From positions 1 to 10,837 of the forward strand of contig JACMIS010000785.1 in assembly GCA_014381035.1 (NCBI GenBank): 10,837 nucleotides of DNA. Reading direction: 5' to 3'. Shown in pieces: positions 1,317 through 10,513 of the stretch. The position numbers and the translations under genes are program-made. A model generated the notes under the pieces. That model was not told the DNA's origin. It saw only the letters and a program-made list of their open reading frames with translations, and searched no databases. Origin of the DNA: Armatimonadota bacterium. Lineage in GTDB: Bacteria > Armatimonadota > Armatimonadia > Armatimonadales > Armatimonadaceae. The stretch's first letter is position 1. Each line of letters starts with the position of its first letter.

Positions 1317-3281
1317 TTACTTCTTCGGTTGCTCGATCTCGATGGCACTGGGCGACGGTTCATCACTGGTTAACGGAGCGATGGCAACGCTACTCGGTGC
1401 CGGAGCCGGAAGGGACGATACATCAGGATTTCCCTCGATATAGTCCTGAATACCATTGGCGATGGAGCGTGCGATCTTCGTTTGCATTTCGGCTTTGACC
1501 AGCAAGGAAACATCGCGACTGTTGGTCATGTATCCAGTCTCGCACAGAATCGCGAGTGTGTTTGTGCGTCGCAACACCGAGAATCCATTGGTGTACATCT
1601 TCCCGTCCGAGCGGGAACCCTGGGTACGGATGCCGCCCATTTCCCGGAACCGGTCGGCGATGCAGTTCGCTAGAACTCGTTCCGACGCATCGTTAAGATG
1701 ATAATAGACCGTGGAGCCGTTCGCGCGGGACCCGGCGGCGTCGCAGTGAACCGCGATAAACATATCCGCTCCGGCGCGGTTGGAGATTTCAGACCGTTCC
1801 GCGAGTGGCACGAAACTATCGGAGTCGCGGGTCATGATCACGTTCGCGCCTTTTTCGCGCAGTTCTTCGGCGAGGCGGCGGGATATGGCGAGAGCGATAT
1901 TCTTTTCGCGTGCGCCGTTTACCCCTTTCGCGCCACCATCCGTTCCGCCGTGACCGGGATCAACGATGATGAGTTTGCCCGCGATCCGCCCGCCCGCCCC
2001 GCGTGGCAGGGTCAGATCCACGATGAAGCCACCCTTCGGGTCCAGTCGGACGGTATAGTTCACTGCGCGAGAAAGGTCAATGAGGAGTTGCGCAGTGGTC
2101 GCGGAGGTATTCACGGTTTGGACGCCCTTGAGAAGCGGGTGCGACGCTTCGGGAAGCGTTGTCTGTGTGCCGGGACCGAATACCGCGTTTTGCACATCCA
2201 AAGTGAAGCGGGCTTTGGTTATCAGGGTGCGCACAGCATTCGCGGAGGGGGAGTCCACAATGATGCGTGCCTGGGTATCCGAAACTCGTACAAACCGGAC
2301 GCCTTTTAGCACCGTGGGAACGGCGGGCTTGCCGGTTTTAGGGTTTGTCTTTTGCGGCCGGGGTGTCGTGGGCAACGGGTTGCCATCGGGACCAACCGTC
2401 ACGGAGACGGGCGGTGCCACGTTGGTTGTGGGCAGGGTGGGGTCGGTCGGCGTCGCTGGTAGTGCCACCCCCGACGATTGCTCGATTGCAACGGGCAGGT
2501 TCTCGACACCGGGGGCAGAAGAAAGTATGGCGACCGTTGAGGACGATGCGGACGGAAGCAAGGCGAAGGGTTTTGCTTCCATGAGTTCGAGGACGATCCG
2601 GGCGGTGTTGCCGTCGAATTGTCCAGTCCGCGCCTTGACAACATTGGGACCGAGCGCGGTCAGGTTCCGGGGTAAGGTTCCGATCTCCGCGCCGGGAAAA
2701 TCAAACGCGACGGTTTTACCGCCATTGAGTTTGGTGATGCGTGGCGCAAGCGGCAGGGTGCCCTTGACGCGCAATTGCGAACCCAGCATCTCTACCGAGG
2801 TCAACACGGAGCGGGTGTAGAGCGTGTTGGTTTTCGTGTCCCAATGGCACTTTCCGCCGAGTGCCTCCGCGAGCGGACACAACGCCACAAAGGCACCGCG
2901 CAGATCGCTTCCGGGCGGGGGGACGCGAATCGTCGCGGTCGCTGTCGCGCCGGTCTCGCCATTCATGAAGTAAACCTTGCCCGCTTTTTGATCCATAGTG
3001 AACGTGGCTCCCAATGCGGCGGAAACGGCTTCCGGCGCGACACACACACTGTTATCTACGGTGTCACGGAAGGTTTGCCGGGCTTTCTCGGAAACGACGA
3101 TCAGCGACCGCCCGATGACAATCTGCGGAAGAGGAGCAGACAACGCCGGGGCGTTCGTGCCGGTGGTCGGCGGCATCGCGGACCGGACGGTTTGTGCAAA
3201 GGCAGGTGCCGCACTGGAAATAGCGGCAATAGCGAAAAGGCTGGCAACAAATCGGTTGCCTCGGTCGGTTCGGCGGCGCAT
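1317..3281 (-). CDS. Secreted N-acetylmuramoyl-L-alanine amidase with CuAO-N-like and AMIN domains
   Basis: Zinc amidase that cuts the bond between N-acetylmuramic acid and L-alanine in peptidoglycan, 654 residues, exported. Domains in order: Sec signal peptide (1-30, ending in APAFAQ); a copper-amine-oxidase-N-like domain (about 52-160); a first AMIN-like beta domain (about 162-242); a Pro/Thr-rich linker (245-322); an AMIN domain (about 324-426, from VLKGVRFVRVSDTQARIIVD); Amidase_3 catalytic domain (about 436-614); and a Pro/Ser-rich tail. Catalytic-site residues are His444 (VDPGHGG), Glu459 (NGAREKN), His512 (AVHCDA) and Glu581 (LCETGYMTN), so it appears active. No inhibitory helix typical of division amidases AmiA/B/C is obvious in the catalytic domain. 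ATG start at 3281 with AAAGGA about 4-5 bases upstream. First gene of the operon with GerMN and murI, with a promoter candidate at 3408-3437. The family call is firm; the gene name (amiC-like) is not. Confidence 0.95.
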   Translation of the reverse strand: MRRRTDRGNRFVASLFAIAAISSAAPAFAQTVRSAMPPTTGTNAPALSAPLPQIVIGRSLIVVSEKARQTFRDTVDNSVCVAPEAVSAALGATFTMDQKAGKVYFMNGETGATATATIRVPPPGSDLRGAFVALCPLAEALGGKCHWDTKTNTLYTRSVLTSVEMLGSQLRVKGTLPLAPRITKLNGGKTVAFDFPGAEIGTLPRNLTALGPNVVKARTGQFDGNTARIVLELMEAKPFALLPSASSSTVAILSSAPGVENLPVAIEQSSGVALPATPTDPTLPTTNVAPPVSVTVGPDGNPLPTTPRPQKTNPKTGKPAVPTVLKGVRFVRVSDTQARIIVDSPSANAVRTLITKARFTLDVQNAVFGPGTQTTLPEASHPLLKGVQTVNTSATTAQLLIDLSRAVNYTVRLDPKGGFIVDLTLPRGAGGRIAGKLIIVDPGHGGTDGGAKGVNGAREKNIALAISRRLAEELREKGANVIMTRDSDSFVPLAERSEISNRAGADMFIAVHCDAAGSRANGSTVYYHLNDASERVLANCIADRFREMGGIRTQGSRSDGKMYTNGFSVLRRTNTLAILCETGYMTNSRDVSLLVKAEMQTKIARSIANGIQDYIEGNPDVSSLPAPAPSSVAIAPLTSDEPSPSAIEIEQPKK

Positions 3282-3534: not shown

Positions 3535-3649
3535 ATTAGGCGAGGGGGGACGGGTTACAGGGAGTGATCTCAGGGAAAGTGCGGTAGCCGCTCGACCACG
3601 ATCCGACTACTTCCTATAAACACTCTGTAACCCGTCCCCCTCGCCTAAT
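3535..3649. repeat. 115-bp element with ~30-bp imperfect terminal inverted repeats (MITE-like or long hairpin)
   Basis: The left arm at 3535-3566 begins ATTAGGCGAGGGGGGACGGG. The right arm at 3621-3649 is its reverse complement except for one missing G in the G-run and a two-base difference near the inner end. The 54-base centre holds further nested complementarity (GGAAAGT with ACTACTTCC, and GCGG-TAG-CCGC), so the whole unit could fold as a long hairpin or cruciform. Both ends carry TA next to GG/CC, as expected for a TA-target (IS630/Tc1-type) non-autonomous element, but the TA also fits within the repeat. The right arm overlaps the stop codon of the porin-like gene. On the minus strand it lies at the 3' end of that gene's transcript and could act as a terminator or stabiliser, although no U-tract follows. 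No transposase is present. Confidence 0.75.
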
Positions 3650-4910
3650 ATTGTAAAAACGACTGTATGGTCAGGCGGCGGTAGACCTGCGTACTGCCTT
3701 GACCGGTCTCAGGAACGTTGCGCTCGAATTCGAACAGGGTGCGTATCGTCCATTGGAACTGGTTGCCGATACGGATCGGGGGAATATACTGCCCGCCGAT
3801 GCCTATGGAGGTAGCGCGACTTGGCTTGTTGACAAAATCCCAGCGACGACTGTAAGCGACGGCGGAAAGATCGCGTTTGATACGATAGTTTGCCTCCGCG
3901 AAGTAGCCATAGACCGGCTCATTATCGTTACCACCGAACACAATCTCCCCACGAAAAATCCACGGATCACGGAACAGTTGCGCATCCGCAGCGAAGCGGG
4001 TGGCTTTTACTACCGACTGTGTCTCCACCGTCCCGGAAGGATACAGGAGCGTGTTGGAGTTCGTCCGCGGGAGTTTTCCCGACAGCAAGGAACCACCGAT
4101 TTCTGCGGGACCGATCTTTGGCAGAGTCACGGCGCGGGCGAGGCGGAACGCAAAAACAGCGTTGTCGTCGAACTCGACGCGGTTCGGTCCTGTCCCGGCA
4201 GTGATGGACCCCGCATAGCGAAAATCGCCGTACCGTCCTTCCAGCATGACGCCGGTATCTACCCGTAGCCCGAGTGCTTTCTCATACAGCGTCTGGATCG
4301 GTTGTAGCGGGGTGTCATAAACCGCGAGTAGCCCGAAGGGGATGACAAACTGACCGACACGCGCCCGCGCCGAAACACCGCCGGAAAGAAACGTGTAATA
4401 ACCGTAGGCTTCGGATAGTCGCAACTTTTCGATCACGGTGCCCCGCTGATCGGTTTCCAGCAACATCTGCACACGTACCCCGCCGCGCTCATCCCGATTG
4501 AGTGGGTTCGCCCGCACCCAGTCCGTCGTCAATCGTCCGGCGGAAACATAGGTACCGCTCTGTTCGCCCAAGCCCGTGACGCTCCGATAGCGCAGATCGC
4601 CTTCGAATCGAAACCCGAAGTTATCCTTGCCGCGAAACATCCGGACCGTGGAGCCGGGATACAGCGTGGAGGTGAAAGGAACCGGTGAAGTGGAGACGGG
4701 TTCGGAACTCGTTTCCTGCGACGGAACCTTGGGGATCGGCACAGGCGAATCGGAAGGAGTCGGTGGACTCTCAGGAGACGGCGGCACCGGGGCATCGTCC
4801 TGTGCGAAGACTGGGGAGGCAGCAAGCAGACAGAAAGTTAAAGCGGCTAAGGCGGTAGGGAGGGAACGGGTAAAGTCGGTCACGGTTTTGTTTCTGTGAC
4901 GGCGCGACAA
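3645..4910 (-). CDS. Outer-membrane beta-barrel protein, phosphate-selective porin (OprO/P)-like
   Basis: 421 residues. A Sec signal peptide ends near AFAQ (37), followed by a Pro/Ser-rich spacer (about 41-82). From about 90 there are alternating amphipathic strands (FGFRFEGDLRYRS, YGYYTFLSGGVSARARVGQF, FRYAGSITAGTG, YGYFAEANYRIKRDLSAVAY), ending in a C-terminal aromatic residue (LQY), as BAM-assembled barrels usually do. The segment GQFVIPFGLLAVYDTPLQP (187-205) resembles the conserved core of OprO/P-type porins. Substrate is unknown. The N-terminal proline-rich spacer is unusual for a trimeric porin and might reach into the periplasm. The start is TTG at 4910 or GTG at 4883; an in-frame stop lies just upstream and neither start has a clear Shine-Dalgarno site. 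The stop TAG lies inside the right arm of the 115-bp element. The barrel call is good; the family call is moderate. Confidence 0.7.
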   Translation of the reverse strand: MSRRHRNKTVTDFTRSLPTALAALTFCLLAASPVFAQDDAPVPPSPESPPTPSDSPVPIPKVPSQETSSEPVSTSPVPFTSTLYPGSTVRMFRGKDNFGFRFEGDLRYRSVTGLGEQSGTYVSAGRLTTDWVRANPLNRDERGGVRVQMLLETDQRGTVIEKLRLSEAYGYYTFLSGGVSARARVGQFVIPFGLLAVYDTPLQPIQTLYEKALGLRVDTGVMLEGRYGDFRYAGSITAGTGPNRVEFDDNAVFAFRLARAVTLPKIGPAEIGGSLLSGKLPRTNSNTLLYPSGTVETQSVVKATRFAADAQLFRDPWIFRGEIVFGGNDNEPVYGYFAEANYRIKRDLSAVAYSRRWDFVNKPSRATSIGIGGQYIPPIRIGNQFQWTIRTLFEFERNVPETGQGSTQVYRRLTIQSFLQY

Positions 4911-5595: not shown

Positions 5596-5697
5596 GAAAA
5601 ATAAATTATTCAGTCTGTTTCATTTCACTGCTCTATGGGGAGAATGTGGCGAGTACTTCTACCTATCGAAGAAACCGTTATCGTCGTGACGGAGTAT

Positions 5698-5713
5698 TGG
5701 CATGAAAATTGCC
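5698..5713 (+). promoter_or_regulatory. Sigma-54 (RpoN) -24/-12 promoter of the PEP-CTERM gene
   Basis: The sequence TGGCATGAAAATTGCC aligns base for base with the sigma-54 consensus TGGCACGNNNNTTGCW. GG and GC have the exact 12-base phasing, and the only mismatches are C-to-T in the sixth base and the final W. Transcription would start about 12 bases after the GC, near 5723-5725, leaving a ~20-base leader that contains the Shine-Dalgarno site at 5731. It is correctly oriented and placed. PEP-CTERM genes are known to be controlled in some species by the PrsK/PrsR two-component system, whose regulator PrsR is a sigma-54 activator, which gives the match biological sense. Confidence 0.6.
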
Positions 5714-5730
5714 ATATTAAAGACGGCGGA

Positions 5731-5735
5731 AAGGA
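5731..5735 (+). promoter_or_regulatory. Shine-Dalgarno site fixing the PEP-CTERM gene start
   Basis: AAGGA with a 7-base spacer before ATG at 5743. This excludes the upstream in-frame ATG at 5635, which lies before the predicted promoter and would spoil the signal peptide. Confidence 0.75.
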
Positions 5736-5742
5736 AGAAATA

Positions 5743-6366
5743 ATGCGTAATTCAATGAAGCGAGCAATCACAGCCATTACCCTGGGCGTTGCTCTCATCT
5801 CTGCTATCTCTGCTAAGGACGCTAACGCGTTCCTCGATCTGAACCTGGTCACCGGTCCTACCGACATCGGCGGCGGTTTATTCACCTATCTCTATGACGT
5901 GGACTTGATTTCCGGTTTCAACGTAACCAACAACCAAGACCTTACTTTGTTCGACGTTCTGGGTATCCAGTCTGCTTCCTTCACCAAGATCGGTGCCTAC
6001 GATGGTACGTTCGCGGTATCCCTTCCGGCAACCGGCGAGAACCCGATCATCGGGTTCACGGACACGTTCATTCCGAACGTTAACCTGAACTACACCGGTA
6101 GCAGTATCGTTGGTCCTGCGACCGGCAGTCCGAACCTGAACGTGGGGCAACTCCTTGTCACCTCGACCGCGGGCGTGTTGCAAAATGGTGCAAACCCGTT
6201 CTCGGCAGTGACCCAGGACAAAGCAACCCTTAACAACTCTTTTGCTCAATCCACTGTAGACGGACCGGGAGTTGCTATCGTTCCGGAAGCAGGTACGATG
6301 GCTCTTCTCGCCACCGGTCTTCTTGGCATGGTTGGCGTCGGTCTTCGCCGCCGCGCTACCAAGTAG
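5743..6366 (+). CDS. PEP-CTERM sorting-domain protein (PEA variant)
   Basis: 207 residues. A Sec signal peptide (MRNSMKRAITAITLGVALIS onward) is probably cleaved after DANA (29). The mature domain is rich in Thr, Asn, Gly and Val with alternating beta-type strands, typical of secreted PEP-CTERM proteins. At the C-terminus are VPEAGTMALLATGLLGM (180-196) and then GVGLRRRATK: the tripartite PEP-CTERM signal of short motif, transmembrane helix and basic tail. The second proline of PEP is Ala (PEA, 181-183), a tolerated variant in the family. Such proteins are handled by exosortase during export, often with exopolysaccharide production; no exosortase is in the window. Codon choice leans to AAC, ACC, GGT and CTG, unlike the neighbours, suggesting high expression. 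It has its own sigma-54-like promoter and terminator, so it is monocistronic. The specific function of the mature domain is unknown. Confidence 0.85.
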   Translation: MRNSMKRAITAITLGVALISAISAKDANAFLDLNLVTGPTDIGGGLFTYLYDVDLISGFNVTNNQDLTLFDVLGIQSASFTKIGAYDGTFAVSLPATGENPIIGFTDTFIPNVNLNYTGSSIVGPATGSPNLNVGQLLVTSTAGVLQNGANPFSAVTQDKATLNNSFAQSTVDGPGVAIVPEAGTMALLATGLLGMVGVGLRRRATK

Positions 6367-6404: not shown

Positions 6405-6440
6405 AAAACCCGCCCTTCTCACGAGGGGCGGGTTTTTTTT
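6405..6440 (+). terminator. Rho-independent terminator of the PEP-CTERM gene
   Basis: AAAACCCGCCC (6405-6415) pairs with GGGCGGGTTTT (6426-6436) around a 10-base loop, followed by a run of eight T (6433-6440). It lies 38 bases after the stop codon. The minus-strand reading has only a four-T tail, but the hairpin sits just beyond the stop of the convergent SEDS-PBP gene and may serve both. Confidence 0.92.
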
Positions 6441-6451
6441 ATATAGAATGA

Positions 6452-9400
6452 TTATGGTGAAAGCGATTGAAGCACTTGTCGCGTTGCTGGTACGGCTGAT
6501 TGTGATCCGTACCCGCCGTTCTCGATAATCACCGCGAACGCGACTTTAGGTTTGTCCGCCGGGGCGAACCCGATGAACCAGGAATGGGAAACGCGGTCGT
6601 ACTGATCGTTCTGCGCGGTGCCAGTCTTACCCGCGACCGGGAAAGGGAGATCGGAGAAGCGACCCGCCGCTGTGCCGGTGATGGTGACGCGGCGCATCAT
6701 GTCGGCGATCCGCGCGGCATCTTCTGGCGAAAGTGGTGTGTCCGCGACTTTCGTCGTCCCGGTTTTCTCCCACTGCGGCGCGAGACGCTTCCCGCCGTTC
6801 GCCACGGTTTGCGCGACGCCCGCCATTTCCAGCGGCGTCGCGAGCATCTCGCCCTGCCCGAAGGCGATCTCGGGCAGGGCGGCGTTGAACTCGGAAAGAT
6901 CGGGCAGATGAGCGAGCCCGTACCGGGCGGCGTGATCGTGCAAGGTCTGGGAGCCGAGTCGCAGACCCGCACGGGCAAAATAGACGTTGCACGACTCGGA
7001 AACCGCGATGGTCAGATTCGTCAAACCGTGCGGTCGCTCACCTTCATCGTCCACGATGCGCCGCCGGGCGTAGGTTTGATTGCCCGCCGTCCAGAGCACA
7101 TTCGGCTCGATGTGTCGGCAATTCACGGTAAAATCGGCGAGTCCCGCCGCGAACATCGCCGAGGTGGAGACGATCTTGAACGTCGAACCGGGCGGATACT
7201 GCCCGGCAATAGCGCGATTGATGAGTGGAAAGTCACCGTCCAGATTGGCATTGAGGTAGCGCATCTCCTGCGGTGTCAGATCGTTCGGGTCGTAGTTCGG
7301 GAGCGTTGCCGCCGCCAGGACCCCGCCGGTTGTCACATCCATGACGACAATCGCACCGCGTCGTTTCTTCGCTCCGTTGCGTTTATCGCGCAGGTTTGCC
7401 GTGACATTCTTCAACGCGGTGAGCGCGGCGGTTTGCAGGTCGGCATTGAGAGTAAGTGCAACATCCTTACCCTGCGGCAACCGAAAACCGGGCGTGTCCT
7501 TGCTACGCCAGTAGCCGACGAGGGACGCTTCCGTCTTGTAGCCGCGTAACCGTTCATCGAACCGCTTTTCCATCCCGGTCGGACCACCGATAGCGGGGGA
7601 CAAATACCCGATCAGGTGTCCCGTGGTCGCGCCCAACGGATAAACCCGTACGCCGTCGGGGCGTGTCGTCGCCAGCACTTTTCCGGCACGGTCGGTGATC
7701 CGCCCGCGCTTGATTCTGGCGGCGAGAGACAGCAGTCGTGGGTTGATGTGCGCCCGCCGCTGCTTGTCACGATCCGGAACGAGCACGGTGCGTGCGGCGA
7801 TAGCATCCGCGGCGAAGATATGGATGAATACGAGCCGCCCGGCGCAGATCAAACCGAGTGTGGCGAAAAAGAACATGCCGACCCGCCGCGCTGATGTTTC
7901 CCACGGGCGCGGCAATACCACCAACGCGCCACTGCCGGGAGGCACCCGAGAGGACAAATGAAGCAGGACACCGACCGCGAACAGCGAGGCGATGAGCGAT
8001 GATTTGCCGAACGATACGAAAGGAAGGGTGACACCCGAGAGCGGGAACAGCCCGAGCGTGCCGGAGACAATGAGCAGTGTCTGCAAGCCGAACAGCGAGG
8101 CGAGACCTGCCGCCAGATAGCGGTCGAAATCGGTCGCGGCGTGCCGCGCAATCGCGAACCCTCGCACGACGATGACGAGGTTACATAGTAGCACGGCGAG
8201 CGAACCGGCAATCCCCATGTCCTCGCCGAGCGTCGCCAGAGCGAGATCCGAGCCGCCCCGCGGAATAAATCGAGTCCCCCCTAGTCCTAAACCGGAGCCG
8301 AGCGGACCGCCCGACGCCATCCCCCATAACCCCAGCGCGAGATGGTCACCGCGCTGTTGCATGTTGTTCCAGGGGCTGAGCCACATATCGAGCCGGGTCG
8401 CGAAAACTCCGATGTCGAGCCGGTATCCGATAAATCCGCCAAGAAGAACCAGTCCCATTCCCGCCCAGATGTATACGCTACGCCCGGTGGCGAGGTAGAG
8501 CATGATCACGAAAACGCCGAAAAGAAGCAGTGCCGGTCCGAGATCGCGCACGATGGCGAAGAGGGCAAGTGGCAAGGCATACATCACGATCAACGGCATC
8601 GTGTCTTTCGCACGTGGCACCGGGAACGGTCCCCACTTCCGTAGAGGGTCGTCAAGCAATGTCGCCCTTTCAGCGAGATAGGCGGCGAGGAAGAAAACGA
8701 GCAACACCTTGATTGCTTCGACCGGCTGGACCCCGGCGACGGAAAGCCGGACGCCACCCGGACCGGAACCGGCAACCGCGAGCAGGATACAACCGCCAAA
8801 CGCCGCGAGTGCGTAGACATAGCCATACCTGTGGAGCGGGGCACGACCGAAAAGTGGGGACAGGGCAAGTATTAGCGCGACCGCACCGCCGTACACGATC
8901 CCCTGTGCTTGACTGACGAACGACAGCCTGTCACGCGTCGGGTCTTTAATAGCAAACAAAAGCAGGACAGAAACAAAGGAAAGGAACGCGGCGACAGGAA
9001 GCAGAAACGCGTCGGCTCGCGGGTGCGCGATTCGCAAAAGCAGATGCGTGACCACGAAAAACGCGACCAACCCGCCCGCCCAGAGAAACAACGTTTTCCG
9101 CACGGTAGCGACACTGCGAACAACGAGTCGAGGCTTTGCCTCGGAATAGTTCGCACGGGGGATGAGAAACTCTTTGCCGCTTTTCACGCGAGCAATGGCG
9201 TCCACATCGTCAAACCCATCTTTCGGACGTCTGGTGACAATCTGCTCCCCGACACTCGCGGGAACGTGCAAAATATTCGCCAACTGTGGCGCGGAAGCGG
9301 TGTTTATATTCAGGAGAGGCGGGGCGTTCGTTTTCTGTAAAGAATGGGGACTTGCGGACAGTTTCGTCAGCGTGGAGAGAGTGATACCGCAAATGAAGAC

Positions 9401-9502
9401 AAGGATTGCCAGAAGTAGAAGCAAGGCTTCGGTTACCCGAAGAGAGCGTTCACGCACGCCGGGACGGATGCGCTCGGAAACAGGTGGTAAGGAGTTGCTC
9501 AA
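6452..9502 (-). CDS. HhH-SEDS-PBP fusion: FtsW/RodA glycosyltransferase joined to class B penicillin-binding protein
   Basis: One 1016-residue membrane protein that should both polymerise lipid II and crosslink peptidoglycan. TM helix 25-47. ComEA-like helix-hairpin-helix domain 62-112 (LLNINTASAPQLANIL, GFDDVDAIARVKSGKEF). TM helix about 136-158. Ten-helix SEDS domain about 163-518, with VAGVQPVEAIKVLL, the large loop 361-428 with Asp419 (GGSDLALATLGEDMG) at the position of the essential SEDS aspartate, and LPLSGVTLPFVSFGKSS. TM helix 541-562, short pedestal domain (about 596-680). Transpeptidase about 716-1014 with Ser773-Thr-Phe-Lys776, Ser837-Cys-Asn839 and Lys959-Thr-Gly961. The helix count (13) places HhH and transpeptidase outside the inner membrane, with the SEDS domain in normal orientation. 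The reading frame is uninterrupted. The start is TTG at 9502 after a close in-frame stop, without a clear Shine-Dalgarno site; GTG at 9457 is an alternative. The transpeptidase is PbpA/PBP2-like. Confidence 0.95.
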   Translation of the reverse strand: MSNSLPPVSERIRPGVRERSLRVTEALLLLLAILVFICGITLSTLTKLSASPHSLQKTNAPPLLNINTASAPQLANILHVPASVGEQIVTRRPKDGFDDVDAIARVKSGKEFLIPRANYSEAKPRLVVRSVATVRKTLFLWAGGLVAFFVVTHLLLRIAHPRADAFLLPVAAFLSFVSVLLLFAIKDPTRDRLSFVSQAQGIVYGGAVALILALSPLFGRAPLHRYGYVYALAAFGGCILLAVAGSGPGGVRLSVAGVQPVEAIKVLLVFFLAAYLAERATLLDDPLRKWGPFPVPRAKDTMPLIVMYALPLALFAIVRDLGPALLLFGVFVIMLYLATGRSVYIWAGMGLVLLGGFIGYRLDIGVFATRLDMWLSPWNNMQQRGDHLALGLWGMASGGPLGSGLGLGGTRFIPRGGSDLALATLGEDMGIAGSLAVLLCNLVIVVRGFAIARHAATDFDRYLAAGLASLFGLQTLLIVSGTLGLFPLSGVTLPFVSFGKSSLIASLFAVGVLLHLSSRVPPGSGALVVLPRPWETSARRVGMFFFATLGLICAGRLVFIHIFAADAIAARTVLVPDRDKQRRAHINPRLLSLAARIKRGRITDRAGKVLATTRPDGVRVYPLGATTGHLIGYLSPAIGGPTGMEKRFDERLRGYKTEASLVGYWRSKDTPGFRLPQGKDVALTLNADLQTAALTALKNVTANLRDKRNGAKKRRGAIVVMDVTTGGVLAAATLPNYDPNDLTPQEMRYLNANLDGDFPLINRAIAGQYPPGSTFKIVSTSAMFAAGLADFTVNCRHIEPNVLWTAGNQTYARRRIVDDEGERPHGLTNLTIAVSESCNVYFARAGLRLGSQTLHDHAARYGLAHLPDLSEFNAALPEIAFGQGEMLATPLEMAGVAQTVANGGKRLAPQWEKTGTTKVADTPLSPEDAARIADMMRRVTITGTAAGRFSDLPFPVAGKTGTAQNDQYDRVSHSWFIGFAPADKPKVAFAVIIENGGYGSQSAVPATRQVLQSLSP

Positions 9503-9546
9503 TCTATTTGCTTAGACGGGAAAACTCACGCTTGGTTGCGATAGTA

Positions 9547-9589
9547 ACGGGCGATTCATTCCCCGTGGAGTGGGGAACGAATCGCCCGT
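9547..9589 (-). terminator. Strong 18-bp hairpin after the rpsF-ssb-rpsR operon
   Basis: The arms 9547-9564 and 9572-9589 pair at 17 of 18 positions (one A/C mismatch at 9558/9578) around a 7-base loop. It lies between the rpsR stop and the start of the SEDS-PBP gene. On the minus strand the stem is followed by TTACTATCG, with no U-tract, so a standard intrinsic terminator is not supported. Alternatives are a processing or stabilising hairpin, or an operator-like site. Confidence 0.5.
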
Positions 9590-9594
9590 CGGCG

Positions 9595-9615
9595 CGGAAC
9601 GGTGTCACCGTCCGG
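9595..9615. repeat. Near-perfect palindrome just downstream of rpsR
   Basis: ACGGTG-T-CACCGT (9599-9611) forms a perfect 6-bp inverted repeat around one base, with partial extension on both sides, 11 bases beyond the rpsR stop codon. It is next to the 18-bp hairpin, making two consecutive dyads in 60 bases. Role unknown. Confidence 0.4.
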
Positions 9616-9625
9616 TAGTTTCTGT

Positions 9626-9880
9626 TTAGGACGCTTCGGCGACGAACGGAAGCAGGGCGATTTCTCGTGCCCGCTTGATCGCGGTCGTCAGCATCCGCTG
9701 GTAGCGGGCGTTGGTACCGGTCGTGCGGCGCGGCAGGATCTTGCCACGCTCGGAGACGAAACGGCGCAGGAGAGCGACGTTCTTGTAGTCAATGAAGTCG
9801 ATTTTCTGCACGGTAAAGTAGCAGACTTTTCGCTTTACCTTTTTGAATTTGGTGCGACGCGGAGCGCGTACAACAGGCAT
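9626..9880 (-). CDS. rpsR: 30S ribosomal protein bS18
   Basis: 84 residues, the normal length for bS18, which binds the 30S platform as a heterodimer with bS6. The family pattern is clear: [36 protein letters not shown], then [23 protein letters not shown] start at 9880 with a weak AG-rich site upstream. It follows ssb by 21 bases on the minus strand, in the conserved order rpsF-ssb-rpsR, and is presumably cotranscribed. Nothing unusual. Confidence 0.97.
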
Positions 9881-9901: not shown

Positions 9902-10513
9902 CTATTCCGCGAACGGGTCATCGAACTGGTCCGCGTTGTCGTTATAGTTATTTGCCGGAGGAGCGTTTCGGCTGGGCGTGGGACGCGGCGCAGCGGTTCC
10001 ACCGCCACCATTGTAGCCGCCGCCACGGTTAGCCGGTGCCGCAACGGGAGCGACCTCGCGTGGTGTCTGGTCGTATTCGCCATTGCCACCGCCGCCGCCG
10101 CCGCCGTACTGGGCGTTACCACCACTTCGGGCGTATTGCTGACCGCCGCCGCCGCCCGCCGCATCACCTTCACCCTGTTCGCGCCGGTCGAGACCTTTTA
10201 CGGTATCGGCGACTACTTCCGCCGCCTTGCGCTTCTGACCCTCTTTATCCACGTAATCGCGGATCTGGAGGCGACCTTCGACGAGCACCAGACGCCCCTT
10301 GTTCAGGTATTGCGCCGCGTACTCCGCGCTTTGTCGCCATGTCGAAATGTCAATAAAGTCGGCTTGTTCCTGCGTGCCCTGATTGCGTGCTTCTTGCGAA
10401 AGCGGGCGATTCACGGCAAGGCGGAACTGCGTGACGGCGATTCCTGACGGGGTGTACTTCAGTTCGGGGTCGTTGACCATGCGGCCGATAAGAATGATGC
10501 GGTTGTAATTCAT
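9902..10513 (-). CDS. ssb: Single-stranded DNA-binding protein
   Basis: 203 residues. The OB-fold spans about 1-112: MNYNRIILIGRMVNDPELKY, VTQFRLAVNRP, ADFIDISTWRQSAEYAAQYL, KGRLVLVEGRLQIRDYVDKEG. It protects single-stranded DNA in replication and repair. A Gly/Asn/Pro-rich disordered linker (about 115-190) is encoded partly by a run of GGC/GGT codons. The acidic tip DDPFAE ends the protein; it resembles the DDDIPF tip that recruits partner proteins, but with two extra residues after Phe, whereas the classical tip ends in Phe. The ATG start at 10513 has GGAAGGAA 8 bases upstream. Between rpsF and rpsR, as in most bacteria; coupling to ribosomal-protein expression is the known logic of this operon. 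Confidence 0.97.
   Translation of the reverse strand: MNYNRIILIGRMVNDPELKYTPSGIAVTQFRLAVNRPLSQEARNQGTQEQADFIDISTWRQSAEYAAQYLNKGRLVLVEGRLQIRDYVDKEGQKRKAAEVVADTVKGLDRREQGEGDAAGGGGGQQYARSGGNAQYGGGGGGGNGEYDQTPREVAPVAAPANRGGGYNGGGGTAAPRPTPSRNAPPANNYNDNADQFDDPFAE

What the first reader, a model, noticed from the sequence alone, without database searches (positions are those of the whole stretch)
6452..9502. SEDS polymerase and class B PBP fused in a single protein with all catalytic motifs
The sequence shows one uninterrupted 1016-codon frame with a full ten-helix FtsW/RodA domain (Asp419) and a full transpeptidase (Ser773/Lys776, Ser837-Cys-Asn839, Lys959-Thr-Gly961). SEDS proteins and class B PBPs normally act as a complex of two proteins, often from adjacent genes. 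A covalent fusion would lock the ratio at 1:1 and build polymerase and crosslinker as one machine. I cannot tell whether it is the cell's division or elongation enzyme, or an extra one.
Basis: partly seen in the sequence, partly recalled or inferred. Interest (0 to 1): 0.75.

Follow-up and report, generated by a model that had tools for sequence, protein, structure and literature searches.

The report
Fused cell-wall polymerase and crosslinker
One bacterial gene makes a single protein that looks able both to spin cell-wall sugar chains and to crosslink them, jobs usually split between two proteins; such fusions are already known to exist, but this one belongs to a third, little-studied wall-building pair that some relatives keep after losing the usual elongation machinery.

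Summary
Window 6452-9502, minus strand, is one 1016-codon frame with a complete SEDS domain and class B PBP. The catalytic residues named are invariant in all 80 aligned sequences, window included. The join is real: full-length homologues exist at 71-86% identity. Natural SEDS-PBP single ORFs are already mentioned in print (PMC10449877), so the fusion alone is not new.
What the tools add: it scores as neither FtsW, RodA nor PBP2 and falls in a third SEDS clade with the two-gene RodA-PbpA pairs of a Ser/Thr-kinase operon (PBP trees agree less firmly). Fusion arose more than once (p-AU 0.0005). The closest genome also has FtsW, RodA, PBP2, an FtsI-type PBP and MreB. Four Armatimonadota without detected MreB, MreC or RodA keep it. 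Some other fused relatives have lost transpeptidase residues, three apparently the SEDS Asp too; the separate homologues examined nearly all keep theirs. Most likely it is an intact, MreB-independent bifunctional wall synthase. Activity is inferred, not shown.

The parts
6452..9502 (-). fused SEDS-class B PBP gene, 1016 codons
9359..9457 (-). extra N-terminal membrane helix (residues 16-48)
   Evidence: AF2 helix, best 19-residue hydropathy 2.77
9119..9322 (-). helix-hairpin-helix domain (residues 61-128) between the two extra helices, predicted outside the membrane
   Evidence: PF03934 over its cut-off, PF12836 below its cut-off; AF2; side of membrane inferred from helix count
9026..9112 (-). 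second extra membrane helix (residues 131-159)
7943..9007 (-). SEDS glycosyltransferase domain, ten helices (residues 166-520)
8246..8248 (-). codon of Asp419, putative SEDS catalytic Asp
   Evidence: invariant in 80 of 80; equivalence to the catalytic Asp of RodA/FtsW recalled
7910..7948 (-). short linker joining SEDS to PBP (residues 519-531)
   Evidence: AF2 confidence falls to 69 at 521-530
7814..7909 (-). PBP membrane anchor helix (residues 532-563)
7358..7813 (-). PBP pedestal region (residues 564-715), weak PbpA-type dimerisation-domain match
   Evidence: PF21922 23.9 bits, below cut-off 27
6467..7357 (-). transpeptidase domain (residues 716-1012)
   Evidence: PF00905; best Foldseek match M. 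tuberculosis PBPA
7175..7186 (-). SxxK motif S773-K776
6986..6994 (-). SxN motif S837-N839
6620..6628 (-). KTG motif K959-G961
6405..6436 (+). terminator-like hairpin (14 pairs) just downstream of the fusion; listed on the + strand only
   Evidence: which notes that such matches are not evidence of function
9541..9595 (-). strong 19-pair hairpin between rpsR and the fusion
   Evidence: -36.9 kcal/mol, z -8.5
9626..9880 (-). rpsR (S18), directly upstream; same order in 4 relatives
9902..10513 (-). ssb, upstream of rpsR; same order in 3 relatives, the fourth contig ends first

Best explanation
The gene encodes an intact single-chain peptidoglycan synthase: a SEDS polymerase fused through a short cytoplasmic linker to its cognate class B PBP. 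It descends from the RodA-PbpA pair of the FHA/PP2C/Ser-Thr-kinase operon, not from FtsW-FtsI or from the MreB-linked RodA-PBP2 pair, and acts as a third SEDS-bPBP synthase beside those two. Inferred mechanism: the SEDS half polymerises lipid II; the covalently held PBP helix and pedestal keep it active, as the separate partner does in RodA-PBP2; the growing strand is passed to the attached transpeptidase for crosslinking; the helix-hairpin-helix insert is a docking or sensing site outside the membrane. Shown by calls: architecture, conserved residues, fold of each half, phylogeny, operon context of relatives, co-occurrence. Inferred: both activities, strand hand-over, role of the insert, site of action.
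Against: No biochemical or localisation data. No genome is held for the window itself, so its own FtsW/RodA set is inferred from G640. In the window's family the gene sits beside rpsR-ssb, not in the kinase operon. The MreB-less genomes form one clade, so their pattern is probably one event (Fisher p 0.001 ignores kinship). One genome of that order (G547) has FtsW but no fusion. 3 of 28 MreB-positive fused genomes also show only two SEDS, and G674, not tested for MreB, shows the fusion alone, so missing genes in incomplete assemblies are possible. The PBP side is weaker: with ten other PBPs as outgroup they split off at only 83, and the Armatimonadota-Acidobacteriota fused clade, 99, is not among the starred sets. 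All trees are quick ones without bootstrap.
Confidence: 0.75

Rival explanations
1. It is the cell's main elongation synthase, working inside the MreB-MreC Rod system in place of RodA-PBP2.
For: Whole-protein best NCBIfam match is pbp2_mrdA, though under its cut-off; mycobacterial RodA-PbpA is an elongation enzyme (background knowledge).
Against: G640 keeps a separate RodA, PBP2 and MreB, and 25 of 28 MreB-positive fused genomes have three or more SEDS matches; the MreB/MreC-less order keeps the fusion but shows no RodA; the SEDS tree separates it from RodA.
Confidence: 0.1
2. It is a divisome enzyme acting at the septum as a second FtsW-FtsI.
For: The SEDS half scores higher with the FtsW (158.6 bits) than the RodA (132.7) model.
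Against: Both scores are far below cut-off; a separate FtsW-like SEDS and a class B PBP lie within about 7 kb on one contig in, for example, G603, G635, G505, G553 and G598; the SEDS tree separates it from the FtsW clade.
Confidence: 0.07
3. The chain is made as one but cut after the SEDS domain, so the working enzyme is an ordinary two-chain complex.
For: The linker block 521-530 (pLDDT 69) is the least ordered internal block besides 51-60; a minor fraction of a synthetic RodA-PBP2 fusion is cleaved (PMC6207328, passages).
Against: The fused order is kept in all 23 sequences aligned; no cleavage motif was looked for.
Confidence: 0.12
4. Artefact: a sequencing or assembly error joined two overlapping genes.
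For: In two-gene Armatimonadota L251 and L253 the two frames overlap by 4 bases, so one indel could join such genes.
Against: Full-length homologues at 71-86% identity on other contigs; at least 50 of 201 genomes of the phylum have one stop-free match over both domains (my count of the rows listed; the list is cut).
Confidence: 0.01

Closest known systems
Natural SEDS-PBP single ORFs (mentioned in PMC10449877, citing the Rhodococcus RHA1 genome paper)
   Same: One reading frame encodes a SEDS protein and a PBP
   Different: The passages seen name no Armatimonadota, third clade, HHH insert or catalytic decay; the cited genome paper is not held
Actinobacterial RodA-PbpA pair of the pstP operon (PMC6554272)
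   Same: SEDS then PbpA-type PBP; same SEDS clade; best Foldseek match is PBPA
   Different: Two genes there, one here; kinase operon absent around the window; no HHH hit in the one actinobacterial SEDS scanned (L043)
Fused SEDS-PBP of Coriobacteriia; Atopobium parvulum and Eggerthella lenta transpeptidase crystals (such as 4r23, 4n1x, 4mnr)
   Same: Same fused architecture; Atopobium crystal numbering 523-949 and the match to residues 507-958 of L002 suggest pieces of such fusions
   Different: Apart from the window's clade in the trees; L002 lies in the kinase operon; no HHH hit in L002 or L003
E. coli RodA-PBP2 (8tj3) and Pseudomonas FtsW-FtsI (8bh1) complexes
   Same: SEDS fold and, by inference, the polymerise-then-crosslink chemistry
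   Different: Separate chains as natural proteins; different SEDS clade; matched chains cover model residues from about 154 on, without the first helix and HHH
Class A PBPs
   Same: Polymerase and crosslinker in one chain
   Different: They use a GT51 domain (recalled); here the polymerase is a SEDS domain and no GT51 family was hit

Membership tests
SEDS glycosyltransferase | PF01098 over cut-off | tested here: met
   146.4 vs 26.4 bits
SEDS glycosyltransferase | ten-helix fold with the conserved Asp | tested here: met
SEDS glycosyltransferase | moenomycin-resistant lipid II polymerisation | not testable with these tools
   needs purified protein
Class B PBP | PF00905 with SxxK, SxN, KTG and no GT51 | tested here: met
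Class B PBP | covalent beta-lactam binding | not testable with these tools
   needs protein; Atopobium parvulum homologues are crystallised with beta-lactams
FtsW (TIGR02614) | equivalog cut-off and FtsW clade | tested here: not met
   158.6 vs 337.5 bits; outside the FtsW clade
RodA of the Rod system (TIGR02210) | equivalog cut-off and RodA clade | tested here: not met
   132.7 vs 336.7 bits; outside the RodA clade
PBP2/MrdA (TIGR03423) | equivalog cut-off | tested here: not met
   238.9 vs 455 bits
RodA-PbpA pair of the Ser/Thr-kinase operon | SEDS half groups with such pairs | tested here: met
   third SEDS clade, SH-aLRT 100
RodA-PbpA pair of the Ser/Thr-kinase operon | PBP half groups with such pairs | tested here: inconclusive
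   split from other PBPs at 90 with three outgroup rows and 83 with ten, both under a star
RodA-PbpA pair of the Ser/Thr-kinase operon | FHA, PP2C and kinase genes beside it | tested here: not met
   none among the ten window proteins scanned; present beside the fused relative G498
RodA-PbpA pair of the Ser/Thr-kinase operon | PbpA-type dimerisation domain PF21922 | tested here: inconclusive
   23.9 bits, cut-off 27; precomputed hits in several close homologues; over cut-off in fused L002, L003 and L089
Natural SEDS-PBP fusion | both domains in one uninterrupted frame | tested here: met

The most novel reading that the evidence does not exclude
Fusion turned the RodA-PbpA pair into a self-contained wall-growth enzyme that needs no MreB cytoskeleton and, in one Armatimonadota order, carries all SEDS-driven growth outside the septum. 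Once the partner is tethered its chemistry becomes optional: the same architecture has repeatedly decayed into a SEDS polymerase with a built-in dead transpeptidase as activator (Chloroflexota; Armatimonadota G622 and G527), or into a chain in which both halves look dead (G593, G573, G666).
Probability: 0.35. Interest if true: 0.75.

Novelty: new variant of a known kind. Interest (0 to 1): 0.5.

Why it matters
Polymerisation and crosslinking by SEDS-bPBP pairs must be coupled, and how the PBP switches on its polymerase is an open question. Natural fusions with intact, half-decayed and apparently fully decayed domains are a ready-made series for asking which half is needed for activation and which for chemistry. 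The Rod-less Armatimonadota offer a test of whether a cell can grow its wall outside the septum with one tethered synthase and no MreB. The fused protein is also a natural single-chain target for structural work; the E. coli structure in PMC10449877 used an artificial fusion.

Tried and rejected
Assembly artefact: rejected on independent homologues. Class A PBP in disguise: no GT51 hit. FtsW or RodA identity: rejected on equivalog scores and the SEDS tree. Single origin of all fusions: rejected (54 fused rows against 60, p-AU 0.0005, quick SEDS tree); the label fused/separate needs at least 5 changes on that tree and 4 on the wider PBP tree. Stops reported inside some frames (G595, G638, G643) were read as two neighbouring genes, not as recoding. 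Kinases near the fusion in G553 and G543 lie beyond other genes and are not counted as operon members. PHROGs, PADLOC and Rfam were not searched. The HHH insert was not folded or searched alone, and no PDB match to it stood out.

Literature: ten searches, seen as listings, and passages of four papers. One paper states that natural single-ORF fusions exist; nothing seen describes the third clade, the Rod-less genomes or the catalytic decay. Subscription papers and preprints are not held.
Full report
OBSERVATION. The frame lies on the minus strand, 6452-9502, 1016 codons from a TTG start. Pfam finds FTSW_RODA_SPOVE at 172-518 and Transpeptidase at 716-1012, both far over their cut-offs, plus a T2SSK match at 64-108 just over its cut-off, an HHH match and PBP dimerisation domains below theirs. 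All but Cys838 (Cys in 69, Ser in 11) are invariant in 80 of 80 aligned sequences: the window and 79 homologues picked from the 120 listed. A chance frame of this length is excluded (maximum 413 codons in 200 resamples).

THE JOIN. One search found 567 proteins, the window's included, at E <= 0.001 among the 7994 candidates scored (only those sharing most words were scored); 120 are listed and 119 of these carry both PF01098 and PF00905 (P0014, a 654-aa partial, has only the first). P0002-P0004, P0006 and P0007 are full length at 71-86% identity on other contigs. The fusion is therefore real and inherited.

A FUSION ALREADY KNOWN IN KIND. [quoted passage not shown] PMC6207328 (passages) reports a linked RodA-PBP2 that largely restores rod shape. 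Atopobium parvulum transpeptidase crystals, several with beta-lactams, carry residue numbers 523-949, and residues 507-958 of the fused Coriobacteriaceae protein L002 match one of them (4jbf) at E 1.7e-177, so these crystals appear to be pieces of a natural fusion.

DISTRIBUTION. A genome handle in the window's phylum was reached through a draw of relatives. I take the phylum to be Armatimonadota because the fused protein of G505 is 100% identical to P0044, named Armatimonas rosea. Of 201 genomes searched, at least 50 show one stop-free match over both domains (my count of the rows listed; the list is cut, and contig-edge and degenerate cases are included). Others have two adjacent genes, which overlap by 4 bases in L251 and L253. 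In G564 (L252) no PBP gene was found beside the SEDS gene. Among loci fetched elsewhere, fused frames also occur in Coriobacteriia (6 loci by record title) and Chloroflexota. The draws of 290 and 386 genomes, which overlap, gave one match below 1e-100 (G450), though only two candidates per genome were scored.

PHYLOGENY. In a SEDS tree of 114 rows the window lies in a clade of 39 fusions (30 Armatimonadota and 9 that I label Acidobacteriota; SH-aLRT 100), inside a third SEDS clade (100) that holds the two-gene pairs of Actinomycetota, Chloroflexota, Bacillota and Armatimonadota, apart from FtsW (96) and RodA (98) clades that contain the E. coli proteins. The Acidobacteriota label rests on the source names of P0070, P0084 and P0091 only. 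The PBP tree of 96 rows, with three outgroup rows, gives the same fused clade at 99. With seven more Armatimonadota PBPs (103 rows) the ten other PBPs still form one side of a branch, but at 83, and among the sets that hold the window the largest starred one is the 30 Armatimonadota fusions (96). One origin of all fusions is rejected on the SEDS tree (p-AU 0.0005). All these trees are quick ones; the SEDS tree has a long branch (L273).

OPERON. L253 (two genes) reads FhaA, FHA, SEDS, PBP, PASTA kinase; L251 reads FHA, SEDS, PBP, PASTA kinase to its contig end; L252 reads FhaA, FHA, PP2C, SEDS. The Coriobacteriaceae locus L002 reads FhaA, FHA, PP2C, fusion, PASTA kinase. G498 has fusion, FhaA, PP2C and kinase (no PASTA hit) genes in a row. 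This is the kind of gene set described for the actinobacterial pstP-rodA-pbpA locus (PMC6554272, passages). In the window's own family the gene instead follows ssb-rpsR (window, G640, G635, G603; G584 shows rpsR before its contig ends).

WHAT ELSE THE CELL HAS. PF01098 was sought in 43 handles, MreB in 38, PF00905 in 21 and MreC in 24. Of the 32 genomes with a fusion that were in both of the first two searches, 28 have an MreB match; 25 of these have three or more SEDS matches (G584's four include contig fragments) and 3 (G630, G577, G654) have two. Five fused genomes were left out of the MreB search; one of them, G674, shows the fusion alone. The 4 without MreB (G498, G598, G621, G537) each have one separate SEDS over the FtsW cut-off and under the RodA cut-off and three PF00905 matches: the fusion, one frame of 501-655 aa, and one of 780-787 aa that I take for class A. 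Only the G598 class B PBP was typed: best model spoVD, below its cut-off, ahead of PBP2. They belong to one order of 5 genomes; the fifth, G547, shows FtsW but no fusion and was not tested for MreB. MreC is absent in all 5 and present in 18 of the other 19 tested (G584 lacks it). The window's nearest genome, G640, has FtsW, RodA, PBP2, an FtsI-type PBP (best model spoVD, below its cut-off), a class A PBP, MreB, MreC and the fusion. In Chloroflexota, the five genomes tested (four with a fused frame, one with a pair) each have two further separate SEDS.

CATALYTIC DECAY. Residue columns were read for the fused and separate proteins that two HMMs found in loci L001-L277 (a gene present in two loci counts twice). 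Of 40 distinct Armatimonadota fused loci, 33 keep D419 and all three transpeptidase motifs, 2 (G640, G584) are cut by contig ends before a motif, and 5 are changed. Of these 5, G622 and G527 keep D419 and read N and E in place of S773 and K776; G593, G573 and G666 have a gap at D419 in a weak alignment (72-108 bits) and changed transpeptidase residues (G593 keeps S773 and K776). Of 9 distinct Chloroflexota fused frames, 8 keep D419 but have a changed SxxK; in six of these 8 the other two motifs fell in an unaligned stretch. The ninth (L009/L133, cut by a contig end) keeps all. The 6 Coriobacteriia fusions keep all. Among separate proteins, 174 of 174 SEDS rows have the Asp and 148 of 149 transpeptidase rows keep SxxK. 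The HMM threshold could miss decayed separate partners.

HOW IT MOST LIKELY WORKS. The simplest reading is a bifunctional synthase in which the tethered PBP helix and pedestal hold the SEDS half active and receive its product. The third-clade position, the kinase operon of its relatives and its survival where MreB, MreC and RodA are not found all point to wall growth outside the MreB system, as in MreB-less Corynebacterineae (PMC8262863, passages). The HHH insert is a likely docking site; its ligand is unknown. 30 of the first 68 listed proteins, window included, and 0 of the other 52 have a precomputed HHH or T2SSK hit. Direct scans show HHH in fused L171, L276 and L275, and none in L002, L003, L089 or the separate SEDS of L251, L253 and L043.

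VERDICT. As a bare fusion it is already on record; as a third, MreB-independent pair with repeated fusion and decay it is a worthwhile lead, not yet a demonstrated mechanism.

Noticed in passing
L082 1444-4602, L089 1489-4134, L093 1378-3801, L100, L103, L108, L112, L114 (Chloroflexota): Fused SEDS-PBP proteins whose SEDS Asp is intact but whose SxxK is changed: possibly a polymerase with a built-in pseudo-PBP.
   Followed up: partly
L273, L274, L275 (G593, G573, G666) and L276, L277 (G622, G527): Armatimonadota fusions in which both halves look degenerate (first three, weak alignment) or only the transpeptidase does (last two).
   Followed up: partly
L241 3088-8853: FhaA, PP2C, Ser/Thr kinase and HEAT-repeat genes directly downstream of the fusion in an MreB-less genome.
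   Followed up: partly
G498, G598, G621, G537, G547: An Armatimonadota order without detected MreC, and without detected MreB in the four tested, but with FtsW.
   Followed up: partly
P0014, P0041: Fusion proteins labelled Akkermansiaceae and Cytophagales in a source are 99.8% and 100% identical over 653 and 918 aa to G640 and G584 of the Armatimonadota set: the labels look wrong.
   Followed up: yes
window 9541-9595, minus strand: A 19-pair hairpin between rpsR and the fusion, -36.9 kcal/mol, z -8.5, with no T run after it; possible terminator or attenuator.
   Followed up: partly
window 1317-3281 and 649-1311: AMIN/Amidase_3 wall hydrolase and a GerMN-domain protein followed by murI: a second cell-wall gene group, kept in G640.
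   Followed up: no
window 5635-6366: Possible PEP-CTERM protein (19.8 bits, just under the Pfam cut-off of 20.7) convergent with the fusion, with a terminator-like hairpin at 6405-6436 between them.
   Followed up: no
window 3645-4910: 421-aa protein with no Pfam hit, 88% identical in G640; 'porin-like' is only a guess from its sequence.
   Followed up: no
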